From IMG/VR virus record IMGVR_UViG_3300045125_000031, positions 37,242 through 101,241 of that record: a stretch of 64,000 nucleotides of DNA; one strand, written 5' to 3'. This DNA is from a virus. The notes beneath the pieces are model-generated. The model was not told where the DNA came from. It searched no databases and saw only the letters and a list, made by a program, of their open reading frames with translations. The first letter of the stretch is position 1, and each line of letters starts with the position of its first letter. Below are positions 40,894 to 60,266 of this stretch, one piece after another. The position numbers and the translations under genes are program-made.

Positions 40894-41622
40894 TTATACC
40901 ACGCCGATGTATATAGAATTCAAAATTACAGAAGAGTCGTAGTCTGTTCTAATCTGGGGTATAGCACCAGAATTCCACATCTCCTCATTCTCTATAAAAA
41001 AGTGCTGAGTAACATACATATTATAGACATATTGATATTTTAGTGATGCTACAAACTGAGATATTTCGGTGGTAGATTTAGGGAAAAGAGTCCTAATCCA
41101 AACCTCAGTATTATTATATTCAGTAGTTAGTTCAAAGTTATAAGTTACAAAAACCTGTGACCCCACCTTTAAGCCATGGAAGTTAAGCATTCTCTGTTCT
41201 GCATTCCAAAGACTTGTACATCCTTCTGGTATATATTTTTCATTGGTATCTTTACCTTTTGAATCTACCCAAAGGCTTACCCACCCTTCGTCACCGTAAC
41301 TTACTCCTAAATTTATTGGTTTTTTATTTAAGTTAAAGTATGCTGCCCAACCAGCCTGTTGTCCAGATGAGGATAAAGAACTTTTTCCATCATTACCGTC
41401 TTTACCAGTTGCACCTTTTTCGCCTTTGGGACCCTGGCTACCGTCTTTTCCAGCAGGTCCTTGGGGTCCAACAGGCCCAGCCACTCCTGCAGGCCCCTGT
41501 GGCCCAGGAACGGGTATATAGTTGATTAATGTATCAGATCCTGTTGTTTGTGTTTGTACTACTTGATCTGCGTAAGTTGATTTTTTTGCACCAGGAAAAT
41601 CCATAGACTTAGATACAGGCAT
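40894..41622 (-). CDS. Collagen-like fibre protein
   Basis: Intact, 242 residues. After about 35 residues comes an uninterrupted run of Gly-X-Y triplets (GPQGPAGVAGPVGPQGPAG, then KDGSQGPKGEKGATGKDGND). A globular beta C-terminus follows (GVSYGDEGWVSLWVDSKGKD). Forms a collagen triple helix in related phage fibres. GATAAT at 41629-41634 lies 6 nt from the ATG. Proline in the Y position is the residue hydroxylated in animal collagen. Confidence 0.65.
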   Translation of the reverse strand: MPVSKSMDFPGAKKSTYADQVVQTQTTGSDTLINYIPVPGPQGPAGVAGPVGPQGPAGKDGSQGPKGEKGATGKDGNDGKSSLSSSGQQAGWAAYFNLNKKPINLGVSYGDEGWVSLWVDSKGKDTNEKYIPEGCTSLWNAEQRMLNFHGLKVGSQVFVTYNFELTTEYNNTEVWIRTLFPKSTTEISQFVASLKYQYVYNMYVTQHFFIENEEMWNSGAIPQIRTDYDSSVILNSIYIGVV

Positions 41623-41681
41623 GTAGACATTATCTCACAATATTATTGACAGATATATAAAAAAGACATATTAATTATTTA

Positions 41682-41765
41682 CTATTTAACCTTGTAGGTT
41701 TTTCCATTTATTTTTATTACTGATGGAATATTATCTTTCTTATCGCTTACCTTAATAACTGGCAT
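41682..41765 (-). CDS. Tiny peptide, 27 residues
   Basis: MPVIKVSDKKDNIPSVIKIN followed by GKTYKVK. The start overlaps the stop of the upstream gene (TAATG). Short beta-like peptide; real translation is supported only by coupling. Confidence 0.4.
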   Translation of the reverse strand: MPVIKVSDKKDNIPSVIKINGKTYKVK

Positions 41766-42163
41766 TATAGACTGCCTCCAGGAGTTACATCTCCAAGTAC
41801 ATAAATTGTACCTATAACTGGAGTCCAGATAATATCATCCTGATCATCTGGAATCTTTACCTGTAAATCAAATGGCAGTTCTGCAACTGTTGACGAATAT
41901 TTAGTTCCCCAATTTTCTGTTACTGAAGGAAGAGCGGTAACTGTAACGTATCCGTCTGAGGCGTTGCAATCTAATGCATCTAATACATCTCCAGACTGAT
42001 CATATGCTGTTGCTTTATAAGTCCATCCTTCAGTACTGTAATATGTAGTTTCATCATTTTCAAAAAATTCTATTTTTAATGTTGCGCTATCTCCACGAAC
42101 AACTCTCCATTGAAGTGACACTGGGTCAGCACCAAAAATTTCGGGAGAGCATAAGTTAGCCAT
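41765..42163 (-). CDS. Ig-like tail protein, paralogue of 30510
   Basis: Start at 42163 (MANLCSPEIFG) is chosen because WRVVRGDSATLKIEF aligns with the paralogue from there. 132 residues with a C-terminal WTPVIGTIYVLGDVTP. TATAAT at 42173-42178 lies 9 nt upstream. Confidence 0.5.
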   Translation of the reverse strand: MANLCSPEIFGADPVSLQWRVVRGDSATLKIEFFENDETTYYSTEGWTYKATAYDQSGDVLDALDCNASDGYVTVTALPSVTENWGTKYSSTVAELPFDLQVKIPDDQDDIIWTPVIGTIYVLGDVTPGGSL

Positions 42164-42179
42164 AATAGAAAGATTATAC

Positions 42180-42440
42180 CATGAAATATGGACTTGCCCC
42201 AAGATCGGTGGGTATGAGAGACAGATCAGGGGGCAAGCAATTAAAAGTATATCATAAGAGACAAAACGGACATCTATGTTTGCATCAGAAAAAACTTTGT
42301 GGTATAGTATTTACAGGGTTTGTGGGGGACTTTGCACTAGAGATACACTCACTTCTCACCATTAGATGTAATAAAAAATCTATGGGGGGAGGGGGGACTT
42401 TCCCTCAGAGATACTTATTACTTATATATAATATATAGAG
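42180..42440. other. Intergenic region with G-rich direct repeats
   Basis: No convincing gene. Two imperfect copies of a G-rich unit occur: GGGGGACTTTGCACTAGAGA near 42325-42344 and GGGGGACTTTCCCTCAGAGA near 42390-42410, about 66 bp apart. A 79-residue plus frame across it has no ribosome site and overlaps the repeats. It may mark the boundary between two minus operons. Confidence 0.35.
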
Positions 42441-42468
42441 AATTACTTGCTATTCTTTGCTACAAAAT

Positions 42469-42741
42469 CTAAAAAATTTCATACATATGATCAAGTTTTT
42501 TTTGCATATTATTTTGCTTAATTTCTTCTTTTAACATATGGTCTTTAAGATGTGATACATCTGACTCTAATCTAGTAACTGCATCTTTTAAACTCGATCC
42601 GCTATTTGGTTTAAACTCTGCTTTTATTTCGGCAAAATAATGTTTTACGAGCCACTTGATTGAAATGGCAATACCAGACAAAATGGTAAACACACCGATT
42701 ATAATTTCGAGTAGTAGGGCTGTGCCTTCGGAAGCGAACAT
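42469..42741 (-). CDS. Membrane protein with coiled coil, holin-like or DUF2746-like
   Basis: 90 residues. One N-terminal membrane segment (LLEIIIGVFTILSGIAISI) and then an acidic-basic coiled coil (AVTRLESDVSHLKDHMLKEE). This topology is typical of actinophage DUF2746 and small holin proteins. Lysis function is unproven. TATAAT at 9 nt upstream. Confidence 0.5.
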   Translation of the reverse strand: MFASEGTALLLEIIIGVFTILSGIAISIKWLVKHYFAEIKAEFKPNSGSSLKDAVTRLESDVSHLKDHMLKEEIKQNNMQKKLDHMYEIF

Positions 42742-46147: not shown

Positions 46148-46342
46148 AGTATAACAGATAGGACTGACAAAATCAACTCTCAGCACGGCGTGTCGTATGT
46201 GATTTAGCCCACATTGCCTAGGAAAAAGTTATCCACAGGTCAGACCATTCATGTGTGGATAACTTATGTGACCTTTATCACAAAAATAGTTTTCCGACAC
46301 GCCCGAAAAACAGGCAAAAATGTCAGACCCCTGTGTTAGACT
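46148..46342. promoter_or_regulatory. Divergent early promoter region
   Basis: Minus promoter TATACT 46148-46153, 17 nt, TTGATT 46171-46176. Plus -10 TAGACT 46337-46342 with a poor -35. Between them are Crp-like palindromes at 46198-46213 and a perfect TGTGA-N6-TCACA at 46267-46282, CCTAGG at 46217-46222, DnaA boxes in opposite orientation at 46229-46237 and 46254-46262, and GGCGTGTCG at 46187 (+) and 46295 (-). Confidence 0.65.
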
Positions 46343-46378
46343 TACAGAGTAAGATAAACAAAAGAAAGGTGGTCTAAA

Positions 46379-47326: not shown

Positions 47327-47449
47327 CCTAGGCAATTTTCCTAGCGTGTCGTCCACAGGCTGTGGATAACTAATGTGTTTAAGGTCACACTTTTATTTCC
47401 CCGAAATACGGCGTGTCGATTTGACTTTTTGAGATTTTTGTGTTAAACT
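47327..47449 (+). promoter_or_regulatory. Modular promoter cassette
   Basis: CCTAGG 47327-47332, DnaA box 47361-47369, Crp-like palindrome 47374-47389 (TGTGT-N6-TCACA), GGCGTGTCG 47410-47418, then TTGACT 47421-47426, 17 nt, TAAACT 47444-47449. The palindrome centre is about 75 nt upstream of the expected start. Confidence 0.75.
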
Positions 47450-47485
47450 ATCCATAGTTAAAAAATAAAGAAAGGATAACTAAAA

Positions 47486-48544: not shown

Positions 48545-48696
48545 CCTGAGCATGATCTAAAACTGCTCAAATTTTTCCTAGGCCGTTTTCCACAAGGTCA
48601 GACTAAGTTATCCACAGGTCATTTAAGATGTGATCAAAAACACACCCAGATTTTACGGCGTGTCGTTTTGATTTTGTCAGTACAAAATGATAGACT
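48545..48696 (+). promoter_or_regulatory. Full modular cassette: hairpin, CCTAGG, DnaA box, palindrome, promoter
   Basis: Covarying hairpin GAGCA...TGCTC within 48545-48582, CCTAGG 48577-48582, DnaA box 48608-48616, Crp-like palindrome 48629-48644, GGCGTGTCG 48657-48665, TTGATT 48668-48673, 17 nt, TAGACT 48691-48696. This is the most complete example of the repeated intergenic design. Confidence 0.75.
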
Positions 48697-48727
48697 TACG
48701 GAGTAAGAATAAAGAAAGGAAACTCAA

Positions 48728-49226
48728 ATGGGTTTAGACATGTATCTTAGTGCTAAGAAGCACTTTGCCAAGATTAATTGGCAAGCATTACAGGCTAATG
48801 ATGAACTATCTTATAATTCACCTGAAGCCGTTTTCCGTCAATTTAATGATTTAATGGAATTGACACAATTATCCTAATGTTGCAACAGACATCTATGGAG
48901 CAACAGTAGAAGTCACTTGTGCTTATTGGCGCAAGGCTAATCAAATTCATGCTTGGTTTGTAAGAGAAATACAAAAGGGTAATGATAACTGCGGTGAATA
49001 CTATGTATCACAAGACCAACTAAAGCAATTGCGTGACCTATGCCAAAAGGCATTGGATAATCGTGACCCTAATCTATTGCCACCACAAGAAGGATTTTTC
49101 TTTGGTGGAACAGACATTGACGAATGGTATTGGCAAGACCTAAAGAATACTATTGCCCAATTGGACAGGATTTTTGCCCTGCCTCAATTGTCCGATTTGT
49201 CCTTTTCCTACAGTTCTTCATGGTAG
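48728..49226 (+). CDS. Phage protein of the GLDMYL type, frameshifted once
   Basis: MGLDMYLSAKKHFAKINWQA, then EVTCAYWRKANQIHAWFVRE, with PNLLPPQEGFFFGGTDIDEW and YYWQDLKNTI-like sequence near the end. The GLDMYL start is shared by many phage proteins of unknown function. About 165 residues; shift near 48870. Confidence 0.6.
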
Positions 49227-53816: not shown

Positions 53817-54833
53817 ATGGCGCATGAATTAGAAACGCAAAATGGCGTTGCTTCTTTCGCATCATTCCGTGAGCCTGCTTGGCATGGTCTTGGCACAGTA
53901 TTCACGGAAGAAAAAACAACAGCAGAAATGTTATCTGCTGCTAACCTAAACAATTGGAATGTTCGTCTTGAGGACGTAAATGTTCCATCTCACTTATCAT
54001 CAGATAAGAATTATCAATACGTTATCCGTACTAACCCTACAGATAATACACAGACCGACATTCTTGGTGTTGTCGGTGAGCGTTACCATGTTTTACAGAA
54101 TGAAGATTTATTCTCATTCGGTGATAACATTCTTGACGGCGGAGGTCGTTGGGAAACGGCTGGCTCTATTCGTGGAGGTCGTGTCGTATTCGGTTCTCTT
54201 GCTCTTGAGCGTGAGACAATTCTTGACCCTAATGGTGTTGCCGATAAGGTAAAAACTTATTTGCTTATCAACACATCACATGATGGTTCTATCGCTATTC
54301 AAGCAAGCATAACACCTGTTCGTGTTGTGTGCGCTAATACTCTTAACCTTGCTTTAGGTTCTAAGCGTGGAAAAAATGCTATCAAGCAGACATTCAAGAT
54401 ACGCCACACGCAGACCGCAAGTGGTAAGGTACAAGTTGCTCGTGAGACTCTTGGTCTTGCTAATAAGTACATGGACGCTTTTGATGTTATGGCTAAGGCT
54501 ATGATTGAGAAAGAAATCACAGCGCAACAGTTCAATGACATTGTGCTTGCTGCTTATCCAAAGCCTGATGAAGAAAAAAAGGGCGCACTTACTCGTTGGA
54601 CTAATAAGGTTGATGTTATCAATGACATCTACACAGGTGAGTTCAATGGAATGATTGCGGGTAACGCATGGGGTGCTTTCAATGCACTAACTGAACGCCT
54701 TGACTGGCATCGTTCTGCTCGTGGTGGAAATACTGAGGCAATGCTTGCTGCTGCTTCTGGTTTTGACCCATCAATTACAGCAGAAAAAAATCGTTTGCTA
54801 AGTATTGTAAAAAATACTTTAGCGATTGCATAA
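53817..54833 (+). CDS. DUF932 / phage-plasmid TIGR03299-like protein
   Basis: Intact, 338 residues. EPAWHGLGTVFTEEKTTAEM, GERYHVLQNEDLFSFGDNIL and TPVRVVCANTLNLALG are the family landmarks. Widespread in actinophages and plasmids; exact function unknown, possibly DNA-replication or host takeover. Start behind AGAAAGGACAAAATA. Confidence 0.75.
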   Translation: MAHELETQNGVASFASFREPAWHGLGTVFTEEKTTAEMLSAANLNNWNVRLEDVNVPSHLSSDKNYQYVIRTNPTDNTQTDILGVVGERYHVLQNEDLFSFGDNILDGGGRWETAGSIRGGRVVFGSLALERETILDPNGVADKVKTYLLINTSHDGSIAIQASITPVRVVCANTLNLALGSKRGKNAIKQTFKIRHTQTASGKVQVARETLGLANKYMDAFDVMAKAMIEKEITAQQFNDIVLAAYPKPDEEKKGALTRWTNKVDVINDIYTGEFNGMIAGNAWGAFNALTERLDWHRSARGGNTEAMLAAASGFDPSITAEKNRLLSIVKNTLAIA

Positions 54834-57137: not shown

Positions 57138-57383
57138 ATGGCTTACAGCGTTAGGCGAGCACCACAAAATACAAAAGAAATACAGGTAGCAAGCAGAATA
57201 GCCAAGATTATTAATGAAGACATGGGGCTAAATCTGGAAGCAGTTGGCTATCATCTGGTTCGCAATCACCCACCAATCGTGTGGCACCGCCTTGAGGTTC
57301 TCGCCTTGACAGCGGGGGAAGAACATGATAAACTTATGAGTGACTATTTAGGAGAAGAGCATGTCAATAGACTTTACAGATAA
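57138..57383 (+). CDS. Uncharacterised protein, 81 residues
   Basis: MAYSVRRAPQNTKEIQVASR, then GYHLVRNHPPIVWHRLEVLA. AGGAGGAACT upstream. Helical; not recognised. Confidence 0.5.
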   Translation: MAYSVRRAPQNTKEIQVASRIAKIINEDMGLNLEAVGYHLVRNHPPIVWHRLEVLALTAGEEHDKLMSDYLGEEHVNRLYR

Positions 57384-57651: not shown

Positions 57652-57918
57652 AAATCTCAGTCCCCCTGCGGGGGCTGCCTAGATCATCATTTAGCATATA
57701 ACAAACCATCAAACCAAATTTGCAAATAGATTACGAACCATTGTAAATTTTTCCCAGAAAGATTACGATCCAAACCATATTTTCCCCAAACCTTATATCA
57801 TAATATTTTTGGTTTGTCAAACCATAGTATCCTAGTGTATAGTTGTATATAGTACTAGGGGTATTACGAAGAGTCTTTTCTATTCCCCGCCGTTTTTAGG
57901 CGGGTATCAAACCAGTGT

Positions 57919-57924
57919 TATAAT
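57919..57924 (+). promoter_or_regulatory. Leaderless extended -10 promoter
   Basis: TG, one base, TATAAT (57919-57924), 6 nt to ATG 57931. No good -35, as expected for an extended -10. Confidence 0.6.
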
Positions 57925-57930
57925 GGTTAT

Positions 57931-58224
57931 ATGAGTCCCCGTCACTTTTCTAAGATGTATCAAAACAAAAACCAACACAGACATGATCAGCAATCTGATT
58001 GGGACTCCTTTACGAAAGACATGACGGTTTTGACGGGTATGTTATATACAATTGCTAAGTGGCCTATCAAACCATTCATCCCTGCATTCTATAAAACAGC
58101 CAAGGAGTATCAAAAGGATTACGAACCTATCTATAATGCTCCACAGGATTGTCCTTGTGGATGCCCGCCCAATAATTGCACCTGCTGCTGCTCAAAGGCA
58201 GAGGGCTGCGGGCACCGCAAATAA
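57931..58224 (+). CDS. Cys-rich small protein within the iteron array
   Basis: 97 residues. A charged N-terminus, a middle YTIAKWPIKPFIPAFYKTAK and a tail CPCGCPPNNCTCCCSKAEGC followed by GHRK, with nine Cys in 22 residues. Two repeat motifs (CAAACCAT and ATTACGAAC) lie inside the coding part. Zinc or disulfide protein; could act at the neighbouring origin. Confidence 0.5.
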   Translation: MSPRHFSKMYQNKNQHRHDQQSDWDSFTKDMTVLTGMLYTIAKWPIKPFIPAFYKTAKEYQKDYEPIYNAPQDCPCGCPPNNCTCCCSKAEGCGHRK

Positions 58225-58602
58225 CGGCGGGTATAAAAAGATTACGATCATACCCTAATTCCCCCTATATATACATATCAAACCATTTTTCCTGGTTTTA
58301 AAACATTTTTAAAAGTATTACGAACTTTCTGGAATTTTTCCCAGAAATTTGGCAATTTTCCTGCATAAAAGATTACGAAGATACTTGACAAACCATGGTT
58401 TTGCAGATATAATGCCCAAACCTTTATATAATGGTTTGACAGATATGATGGTTTGTGGTATAAGATGGCATGATGGTTTGATGGATATATGGTTTTGTGG
58501 TTTGGGATTACGAACGCCATCGTTAAAAGCGTTCCATACACCACTATCCTCCACTTTACTCCACTTTAACCCTATCCAATAATATAATCAGTAAGATTTA
58601 TC

Positions 58603-58654
58603 TGTGGATAACTTGTGGATAACTATACCAAACCATCTATCAACCTGTGGATAA
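58603..58654 (+). promoter_or_regulatory. Three consensus DnaA boxes
   Basis: TGTGGATAA at 58603-58611, 58614-58622 and 58646-58654, all the same strand. The first two are 11 bp apart. A fourth lies inside the next gene (58803-58811). Confidence 0.75.
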
Positions 58655-58687
58655 CTTCGACGGTATATAAACCAATTGACCATATGC

Positions 58688-58693
58688 TACAAT
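58688..58693 (+). promoter_or_regulatory. Leaderless extended -10 promoter
   Basis: TG, one base, TACAAT (58688-58693), 6 nt to ATG 58700. Confidence 0.55.
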
Positions 58694-58699
58694 GAATAT

Positions 58700-58930
58700 A
58701 TGTGGTGGTCATGGGTATTAGCAGTTATAGGCGTAGCAGGTATTTACTTTGTTGGTCGTAAGGACAAATGGGGATGGTTTGTCTTATTGTTCAACGAATG
58801 CCTGTGGATAACTTATGCTCTTATAACAAACCAGTATGGTTTTATATTCTCAGCCTTAGCCTATGCAGCCGTATATATCAGATCATATATCCATTGGTCT
58901 AAAGAACCAGTTAATGAGATACCTCTATAG
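58700..58930 (+). CDS. Membrane protein, leaderless, 76 residues
   Basis: Two to three hydrophobic segments (WSWVLAVIGVAGIYFVGRKD; WGWFVLLFNECLWITYALI; YGFIFSALAYAAVYI). The start at 58700 fits the -10 spacing better than an upstream TTG. It resembles a fragment of PnuC-type permease helices, but this is a weak likeness. Confidence 0.55.
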   Translation: MWWSWVLAVIGVAGIYFVGRKDKWGWFVLLFNECLWITYALITNQYGFIFSALAYAAVYIRSYIHWSKEPVNEIPL

Positions 58931-59477: not shown

Positions 59478-60266
59478 ATGCCTAACTACGATTTATTAGA
59501 AGCAAGAGATCCCGACAAACTAAACTCACTAAAAGAGATTTGGGAACCAAAAAAGGAATACATTGAGAAGGATCTATGGGTCATTCGCAACTTCCTATCA
59601 CCAGAAGAAATAGAATGGTTTAATAAGGAAGCCAACGATCCTGAAGGTTGGTATCCAACAATGCGTTCCCCATACGGTGGTAACATTAGAAATAAGTTTC
59701 TTGGCTATGTTCCTGAGTATGGTGATGATGGAGTTTTAATTCCACCGCATCCAAAAAATAATCCAAAGTTTATACCTGTACCTCATTTAGGAAATATTGA
59801 ACAGAGATTAGAGGCAGTCCTACCTAAATATTTTGCAGGTGCTGGAGCATTACAGTCTTTCTTTGAGGTTCCAGAAGATGAGCCTCTTTCTTGGAGTCCA
59901 GACCTTAAGGTAAAAGATATTGATTGGGCCATGGACTTTCATTACGAAAGAGACCACGAGGATTCAGAAGAATATCAGCACACAATAGTTTCAGGTTCAG
60001 ATACTAAAGATGCTGTAATGTCAGAGACTGTTATTACTGCATCATTTAATGTATATTTAAACGATAACTTTGATGGTGGTATCTTAGAGTTTAAAAATAA
60101 AGATTATGTTATCAAACCAGAAGTGGGAATGCTTATAAATATTCCTCTATATAGAGAGTTTGAGCATAGAGTTACCAAGGTTACAAATGGTAATAGACAT
60201 ACTATCTATGGAAGATGCTGGGAAGATATCGATAAGTCTTTCTTATCATCAAGAGAAGATTGTTAG
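59478..60266 (+). CDS. 2OG-Fe(II) oxygenase, prolyl 4-hydroxylase-like (10), leaderless
   Basis: Intact, 262 residues and the only plus-strand copy. Ligands predicted at H160 and D162 (DHED) or H155, and H230 (FEHRVTKVTNGNR), with R240 as the 2OG anchor. The signature YLNDNFDGGILEF is at about 193-205, most like copy 4. Its early-region location and own leaderless promoter suggest different timing from the virion-block copies. Confidence 0.8.
   Translation: MPNYDLLEARDPDKLNSLKEIWEPKKEYIEKDLWVIRNFLSPEEIEWFNKEANDPEGWYPTMRSPYGGNIRNKFLGYVPEYGDDGVLIPPHPKNNPKFIPVPHLGNIEQRLEAVLPKYFAGAGALQSFFEVPEDEPLSWSPDLKVKDIDWAMDFHYERDHEDSEEYQHTIVSGSDTKDAVMSETVITASFNVYLNDNFDGGILEFKNKDYVIKPEVGMLINIPLYREFEHRVTKVTNGNRHTIYGRCWEDIDKSFLSSREDC

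What the first reader, a model, noticed from the sequence alone, without database searches (positions are those of the whole stretch)
57690..58670. Iteron-rich candidate origin with three DnaA boxes
Around twenty CAAACCAT/ATGGTTTG motifs in both orientations and three consensus DnaA boxes within 52 bp occupy one kilobase with little coding. This density resembles theta origins and partition sites. No Rep-like gene is visible nearby, so the iteron-binding protein would be elsewhere or novel; the Cys-rich 57931 product is a candidate.
Basis: partly seen in the sequence, partly recalled or inferred. Interest (0 to 1): 0.75.

Follow-up and report, generated by a model that had tools for sequence, protein, structure and literature searches.

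The report
Conserved DnaA-type origin in freshwater phages
A one-kilobase stretch of a freshwater bacterial virus carries a short, single-copy DNA element, shared by scores of related viruses, that is built like a bacterial chromosome's replication start site and is probably where the virus begins copying its DNA.

Summary
Window 57690-58670 holds 10 exact CAAACCAT, 16 CAAACC, 8 same-strand ATTACGA motifs and three consensus DnaA boxes within 52 bp; no 981-bp stretch before 56.5 kb comes close.

The main signal is a ~150-bp module at its right end (58507-58654), not the CAAACCAT array. In order it has a near-consensus sigma-70 promoter reading in (58385-58413), ATTACGAA, three tandem 10-bp repeats (CCACTWTNCT), an AT-rich tract with ATCAGTAA, and tandem DnaA boxes. 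It recurs in 98 distinct viral sequences. The repeat pair occurs at one place in each of 12 related ~95-120 kb phage genomes.

Beside the boxes runs a period-3 adenine track that meets the published DnaA-trio rule: at least 5 trios at 89% of core boxes, 0 of 86 other boxes, 8% of shuffles. It overlaps the least stable DNA within 600 bp. The promoter is conserved but the next gene is not.

Best reading: the phage replication origin, opened by host DnaA and stimulated by transcription. CAAACC boxes look like promoter operators. The Cys-rich ORF is not the general binder. No GC-skew switch was found, some relatives lack the DnaA boxes, and nothing was tested experimentally.

The parts
57702..58505 (.). 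Array of CAAACC[AT][TC] boxes in both orientations (motif A), probable operators for a sequence-specific regulator
   Evidence: 16 CAAACC in 57690-58670 vs at most 4 per 981 bp in 0-56.5 kb. Overlap the -35 of both promoters. Last two bases vary between relatives (AT/TT/TC); almost absent in 14 relatives that keep the core
57730..58513 (+). Eight ATTACGA[A/T] boxes (motif B) at 57730, 57762, 57863, 58118, 58241, 58317, 58372 and 58507, all on + strand; the last one begins the conserved core
   Evidence: 8 in region vs at most 1 per 981 bp elsewhere. Retained in relatives whatever the motif A sequence; last copy conserved in nearly all 98 cores
58385..58413 (+). Promoter P1, TTGACA-17-TATAAT (12/12), reading into the core; -35 overlaps CAAACCAT
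   Evidence: At least 11/12 consensus in 50 of 58 nonredundant relatives, typically ~100-170 bp upstream of the repeats; 1.4% of shuffles and 15% of sites elsewhere
58436..58464 (+). Promoter P2, TTGACA-17-TATAAG, in tandem with P1; ATGGTTTG boxes overlap its -35 and lie in its spacer
   Evidence: Sequence and relatives L008 and L017
58541..58570 (+). Three tandem 10-bp repeats CCACTATCCT/CCACTTTACT/CCACTTTAAC, one helical turn apart; candidate binding array of a phage initiator
   Evidence: CTCCACTTNNCTCCACTT (up to 2 mismatches) found at one place in each of 12/12 related genomes, 0 in the reversed-pattern control; conserved in 98 cores
58571..58602 (-). AT-rich unwinding tract with invariant ATCAGTAA (58587-58594) and seven contiguous NAN DnaA-trio-like triplets (58577-58597), 5 bp from the proximal DnaA box
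   Evidence: Lowest duplex stability within 600 bp either side in 30 relatives; period-3 A at 83-100%; at least 5 trios at 89% of core boxes vs 0/86 other boxes; tandem-box-only test
58603..58622 (-). Tandem DnaA boxes TTATCCACA, 11 bp apart, oriented toward the trios
   Evidence: spacing 11 or 12 bp in 75 relatives, 8 bp from ATCAGTAA in 83 of 94
58646..58654 (-). Third DnaA box
   Evidence: a third box occurs in many relatives
58803..58811 (-). Fourth DnaA box, inside ORF 58676-58930
57138..57383 (+). 81-aa helical protein gene just upstream of the element, present in 11/12 related genomes; possible regulator, function unknown
   Evidence: AlphaFold2 mean pLDDT 76.8, all helical, no PDB match
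57931..58224 (+). 97-aa Cys-rich-tail ORF within the region; not part of the conserved module
   Evidence: 4 of 12 genomes, N-terminal part only in the other three; no Pfam or PHROG match

Best explanation
The 58385-58654 segment is the replication origin of a large group of uncultured freshwater phages related to Stanwilliamsviridae. Inferred working: a strong promoter (P1/P2), regulated by a protein binding CAAACC boxes, is fired early and RNA polymerase transcribes into the module. An unidentified phage protein binds the three helically phased CCACTWTNCT repeats. Host DnaA binds the tandem TTATCCACA boxes and extends as a filament onto the adjacent DnaA-trios, opening the AT-rich tract. The phage's own DnaB-type helicase, primase and Pol III alpha then load. 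Shown here: the sequence architecture, its conservation, its single copy, the low duplex stability, the trio signature, the promoter conservation without a conserved downstream gene, the phage's own replication genes, and the lack of a phage DnaA. Not shown: any protein binding, unwinding, transcription or replication initiation.
For: Conserved core in 98 distinct sequences. One place per genome in 12/12 genomes. Conserved promoter pointing in (50/58 at 11/12 or better), but first downstream ORF in 39 families among 46 phages. Transcribed strand less structured than shuffles, z +0.65, which argues against a structured RNA. Lowest duplex stability at the trio tract. DnaA-trio test: 89% vs 0/86 other DnaA boxes, 0/57 on the other side of the same boxes, 8% of shuffles. 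Less biased version anchored only on tandem boxes: 18 of 20 at the element have at least 5 trios, none of the pairs elsewhere do. Box spacing, spacer length and orientation fit the published rule (PMC8287927; PMC8235120). Phage encodes Pol III alpha and RecA, primase and DnaB-like helicase, and no DnaA. The cultured relative NootNoot has its only two DnaA boxes in 25 kb in a noncoding gap beside its terminal repeat.
Against: No GC-skew switch at the element; skew tracks gene orientation. Ten DUF932-anchored relatives lack DnaA boxes there, and six of those keep at least 6 trios, so the track is not clearly tied to the boxes (p = 0.26, in a comparison whose box-less set included two false sites, L027 and L078). 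Three relatives keep boxes and trios but lack the repeats. The spacer is AT-rich rather than GC-rich. No initiator identified. The position may be near the physical genome end, so a packaging role is not excluded. Many of the 98 cores were found with a pattern containing ATCAGTAA and a DnaA box, so box frequency must be read from the DUF932-anchored set.
Confidence: 0.68

Rival explanations
1. A regulatory control region: operator-loaded early promoters whose transcript or downstream genes are controlled by a phage repressor or activator (CAAACC, ATTACGA) and by DnaA acting as a transcription factor; replication starts elsewhere.
For: CAAACC overlaps -35 elements of tandem promoters. Promoter strength and position conserved. 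Boxes differ between relatives as operators do. Other DnaA boxes in the window lie in promoter cassettes at 46.2-48.7 kb.
Against: First downstream gene not conserved (39 families among 46). Most conserved bases lie downstream of the promoters, in the repeats, AT-rich tract and boxes. Trio signature specific to this site. Lowest duplex stability at the tract.
Confidence: 0.17
2. A packaging or terminal-repeat boundary site (pac-like) recognised by terminase, with DnaA boxes incidental.
For: Single copy per genome. In the relative NootNoot the DUF932 gene lies in the 10.8-kb terminal repeat and the DnaA-box gap is 62-92 bp outside its boundary. Several contigs end close to the element, though a shared core also breaks assemblies.
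Against: DnaA boxes, trios, AT-rich tract and an inward promoter are not expected of a pac site. Boundary in these phages unknown; no terminase gene seen near the element.
Confidence: 0.1
3. Partition centromere (parS-like array) of a plasmid-like prophage.
Against: The arrays overlap promoters; the conserved module is DnaA/AT-rich; the CAAACC array is replaced in 14 relatives. No ParA/ParB was identified among the proteins examined, though par families were not searched systematically. Large genome with its own polymerase suggests lytic life.
Confidence: 0.03

Closest known systems
Basal unwinding system (BUS) of bacterial oriC (B. subtilis DnaA boxes 6/7 plus DnaA-trios; PMC6669920, PMC8287927)
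   Same: Tandem DnaA boxes 2-3 bp apart, oriented toward at least 5 contiguous NAN triplets a few bp away, followed by AT-rich DNA
   Different: On phage genomes without a dnaA gene; spacer AT-rich, not GC-rich; adjacent 10-bp tandem repeats and an operator-covered promoter; boxes missing in some relatives
Bacteriophage lambda ori (O iterons, AT-rich DUE, transcriptional activation from pR, DnaA boxes; PMC3985674)
   Same: Iteron-like repeats next to an AT-rich tract, regulated promoter transcribing through, DnaA boxes nearby, helicase loading downstream
   Different: Not inside an initiator gene; no O/P homologue found; 10-bp rather than 19-bp repeats; DnaA boxes with trios directly adjoin the unwinding tract
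RNA-based origins of extrachromosomal mycobacterial prophages (PMC7157519)
   Same: Actinobacterial phages without RepA in which a noncoding transcript region is needed for replication
   Different: Those adjoin parABS; that paper's text does not mention DnaA
Stanwilliamsviridae of Streptomyces (NootNoot, BillNye)
   Same: Related DUF932 (~51%) and Pol III alpha (~55%); NootNoot has a noncoding gap with two DnaA boxes and TCGTAAA repeats near its terminal repeat
   Different: Boxes inverted, no CCACTWTNCT repeats or ATCAGTAA module seen; 53% GC over the 25-kb stretch read

Membership tests
DnaA basal unwinding system (BUS) | One or two DnaA boxes within published mismatch limits, tandem pair with 0-3 bp between | tested here: met
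   Exact TTATCCACA pair, 2 bp apart in the window, 2-3 bp in 75 relatives; absent in 10 DUF932-anchored relatives
DnaA basal unwinding system (BUS) | At least three contiguous NAN trios within 0-16 bp of the box | tested here: met
   Seven trios at spacer 5 in the window; at least 5 at 89% of core boxes vs 0/86 other boxes
DnaA basal unwinding system (BUS) | Box orientation toward trios (5'-TTATCCACA-3' then 5'-CTA-3'-type triplets) | tested here: met
   Sequence; orientation as in PMC8235120
DnaA basal unwinding system (BUS) | GC-rich spacer between box and trios (usual in chromosomal oriC, not part of the published search rule) | tested here: not met
   Spacer GATAA in the window; AT-rich in relatives
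DnaA basal unwinding system (BUS) | DnaA-dependent strand opening | not testable with these tools
   Needs purified DnaA or permanganate footprinting
Iteron-type theta origin | Direct repeats phased to the DNA helix next to an AT-rich region | tested here: met
   Three 10-bp repeats next to the least stable tract
Iteron-type theta origin | Linked rep gene whose product binds the repeats | tested here: not met
   No Rep or DnaA-like match near the element or among the proteins examined; unknown proteins remain
Replication origin in general | Single conserved locus per genome | tested here: met
   12/12 genomes, one place each
Replication origin in general | GC-skew switch or copy-number peak | tested here: inconclusive
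   No skew switch, but skew follows gene orientation; read depth not available

The most novel reading that the evidence does not exclude
A widespread uncultured phage group carries a DnaA-trio origin of the chromosomal type on its own genome. The phage would recruit host DnaA for strand opening while supplying its own repeats, promoter control, helicase, primase and polymerase, and some lineages would have shed the DnaA boxes and open the same tract with a phage protein. That would be a natural series from host-dependent to phage-only initiation.
Probability: 0.45. Interest if true: 0.78.

Novelty: new variant of a known kind. Interest (0 to 1): 0.62.

Why it matters
If right, this is a compact, very well conserved phage origin in a group of phages probably infecting abundant freshwater actinobacteria (host inferred from WhiB, actinophage relatives and low GC). 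In the open-access library searched I found no report of DnaA-trios in a phage. The natural losses of boxes or repeats in different lineages give a ready-made set for asking which part of an origin does what, and for testing the BUS model outside chromosomes. The module is also a single-copy marker that identifies these phages in metagenomes.

Tried and rejected
RNA element: no Rfam match except a tRNA; fold of the transcribed region no better than shuffles; rejected. Conserved downstream gene as the promoter's target: rejected. Cys-rich ORF as binder: rejected. Host oriC as source: exact ATCAGTAA-plus-box pattern found once in the bacterial and archaeal genome collection, in a Bacillota MAG contig, so no copy from a host oriC was seen. 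Cultured phages: no nucleotide match beyond DnaA boxes. Clean switch of motif A between lineages: rejected, the last two bases shift gradually. Candidate initiators: the 180-aa protein near the DnaB-like gene (11/12 genomes) folds poorly (pLDDT 53) and the 81-aa upstream protein has no PDB relative; neither assigned. Contig ends as evidence for a physical terminus: ambiguous. GC skew as an origin signal: uninformative because it follows gene direction.

Full report
What was checked. The window is bases 37242-101241 of a 101,241-bp virus record in IMG/VR. In 57690-58670 there are 10 exact CAAACCAT, 14 CAAACCA, 16 CAAACC and 8 ATTACGA. In 0-56.5 kb no 981-bp stretch holds more than 1, 2, 4 and 1 of these. 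Three DnaA boxes at 58603-58654 span 52 bp. The cluster is real; the figure of 'around twenty' needs relaxed matching.

Relatives. The DUF932 gene at 53817-54833 pulled out 80 loci from viral contigs. Most carry the same kind of region about 3.5-5 kb downstream. Lining them up shows that the conserved feature is a ~150-bp module. Its order is: promoter, ATTACGAA, a GC-richer stretch ending in GCTCCAT or similar, (CTCCACTWTN)x3, an AT-rich tract, ATCAGTAANAT, then TGTGGATAAC twice or three times. With further contigs found by a DNA pattern there are 98 distinct sequences. The repeat pattern CTCCACTTNNCTCCACTT lies at exactly one place in each of 12 related genomes and never in the reversed-pattern control.

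Why an origin. First, single copy and conserved place. Second, the promoter: at least 11/12 consensus in 50 of 58 nonredundant phages, usually about 100-170 bp upstream of the repeats and reading in, against 1.4% of shuffles and 15% of comparable stretches elsewhere. The first downstream ORF falls into 39 families among 46 phages, so the promoter does not serve a fixed gene. The transcribed strand has no unusual structure. Third, the ATCAGTAA/AT-rich tract is the least stable 40 bp within 600 bp on either side, averaged over 30 relatives. Fourth, the phage has its own Pol III alpha and RecA, primase and DnaB-like helicase, but no DnaA.

DnaA-trios. The published BUS rule asks for a DnaA box (or tandem pair with up to 3 bp between), a spacer of 0-16 bp and at least three NAN triplets (PMC8287927). 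In the window the proximal box is followed, after GATAA, by seven such triplets on the proper strand. Among 36 nonredundant cores the in-phase A is present at 83-100% at six consecutive period-3 positions, and the extension upstream of ATCAGTAA is longer in phase than out of phase. At 57 core boxes the mean run is 6.2 and 89% have at least five. In shuffled flanks 8% do; on the other side of the same boxes and at 86 other DnaA boxes in the same loci, none do. Because many cores were found with a pattern containing ATCAGTAA, the test was repeated on DUF932-derived loci with tandem boxes as the only anchor: 18 of the 20 pairs at the element have at least five trios, and none of the pairs elsewhere do (the 18/20 split by location is my count from that listing).

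What speaks against a simple DnaA origin. Ten DUF932-anchored relatives keep the repeats and the AGTAA tract but have no DnaA boxes there, and six of these keep at least six trios. Three (L031, L033, L078) keep boxes and trios but lost the repeats. So the parts are exchangeable, and DnaA dependence may not be universal. GC skew does not switch at the element.

The CAAACC boxes. They sit on the -35 elements of P1 (TTGACAAACC) and P2 (GGTTTGACA). Their last two bases shift gradually between relatives (AT, TT, TC), and 14 relatives with the core have almost none. This fits operators of a regulator better than replication iterons. ATTACGA persists through these changes and its role is unknown.

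Rivals. A pure control region is possible but leaves the trios, AT-rich tract and lack of a conserved target gene unexplained. A packaging boundary cannot be excluded. In the cultured relative NootNoot the DUF932 gene lies inside a 10,787-bp terminal repeat, and the noncoding gap with its only two TT[AG]TCCACA boxes in 25 kb lies 62-92 bp outside that repeat. An origin next to a terminal repeat would fit both facts.

Known and new. It works like a mixture of lambda ori (PMC3985674) and the chromosomal BUS (PMC6669920). By the published sequence rule it is a BUS, apart from the usual GC-rich spacer. No report of DnaA-trios in phages was found in the open-access library, which does not prove there is none.

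Shown versus inferred. Shown: sequence features, conservation, statistics and gene content. Inferred: every binding, unwinding, transcription and replication step, and the actinobacterial host.

Noticed in passing
whole record G000, including the window: The window's contig has only 7 ORFs of at least 300 aa, against 23-31 in four related genomes, and helicase and other conserved genes are split by stops or frameshifts. It is probably an indel-rich assembly.
   Followed up: partly
window 46160-46370, 47340-47480, 48560-48730: Repeated promoter cassettes before small + strand genes, each with a DnaA box (TTATCCACA, mostly as GTTATCCACAGGTCA), CRP/GlxR-like TGTGA-N6-TCACA palindromes and a GGCGTGTCG motif. 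Such boxes away from the element lack trios.
   Followed up: partly
G001 (L209:8309-10393 and L209:15577-17121): A related phage encodes a 694-aa peroxidase-family (KatG-like) protein and a 514-aa tryptophan-halogenase-family protein, unusual auxiliary genes.
   Followed up: no
L233:13851-15250 (Streptomyces phage NootNoot): Noncoding gap at the terminal-repeat boundary with an inverted DnaA-box pair, TCGTAAA repeats and CTACTAC-rich 22-bp repeats; possible counterpart of the element in a cultured phage.
   Followed up: partly
L119, L121, L124, L160, L176: A divergent lineage with two CTCCACTT-type repeats, ATCAGTAAGATTTATCTGTGGATAAC and up to five DnaA boxes but mostly without the ATTACGA/third-repeat part.
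   Followed up: no
window 59478-60266 and G001 41204-42642: 2OG-Fe(II) oxygenase-like genes sit next to the element in this phage group.
   Followed up: no
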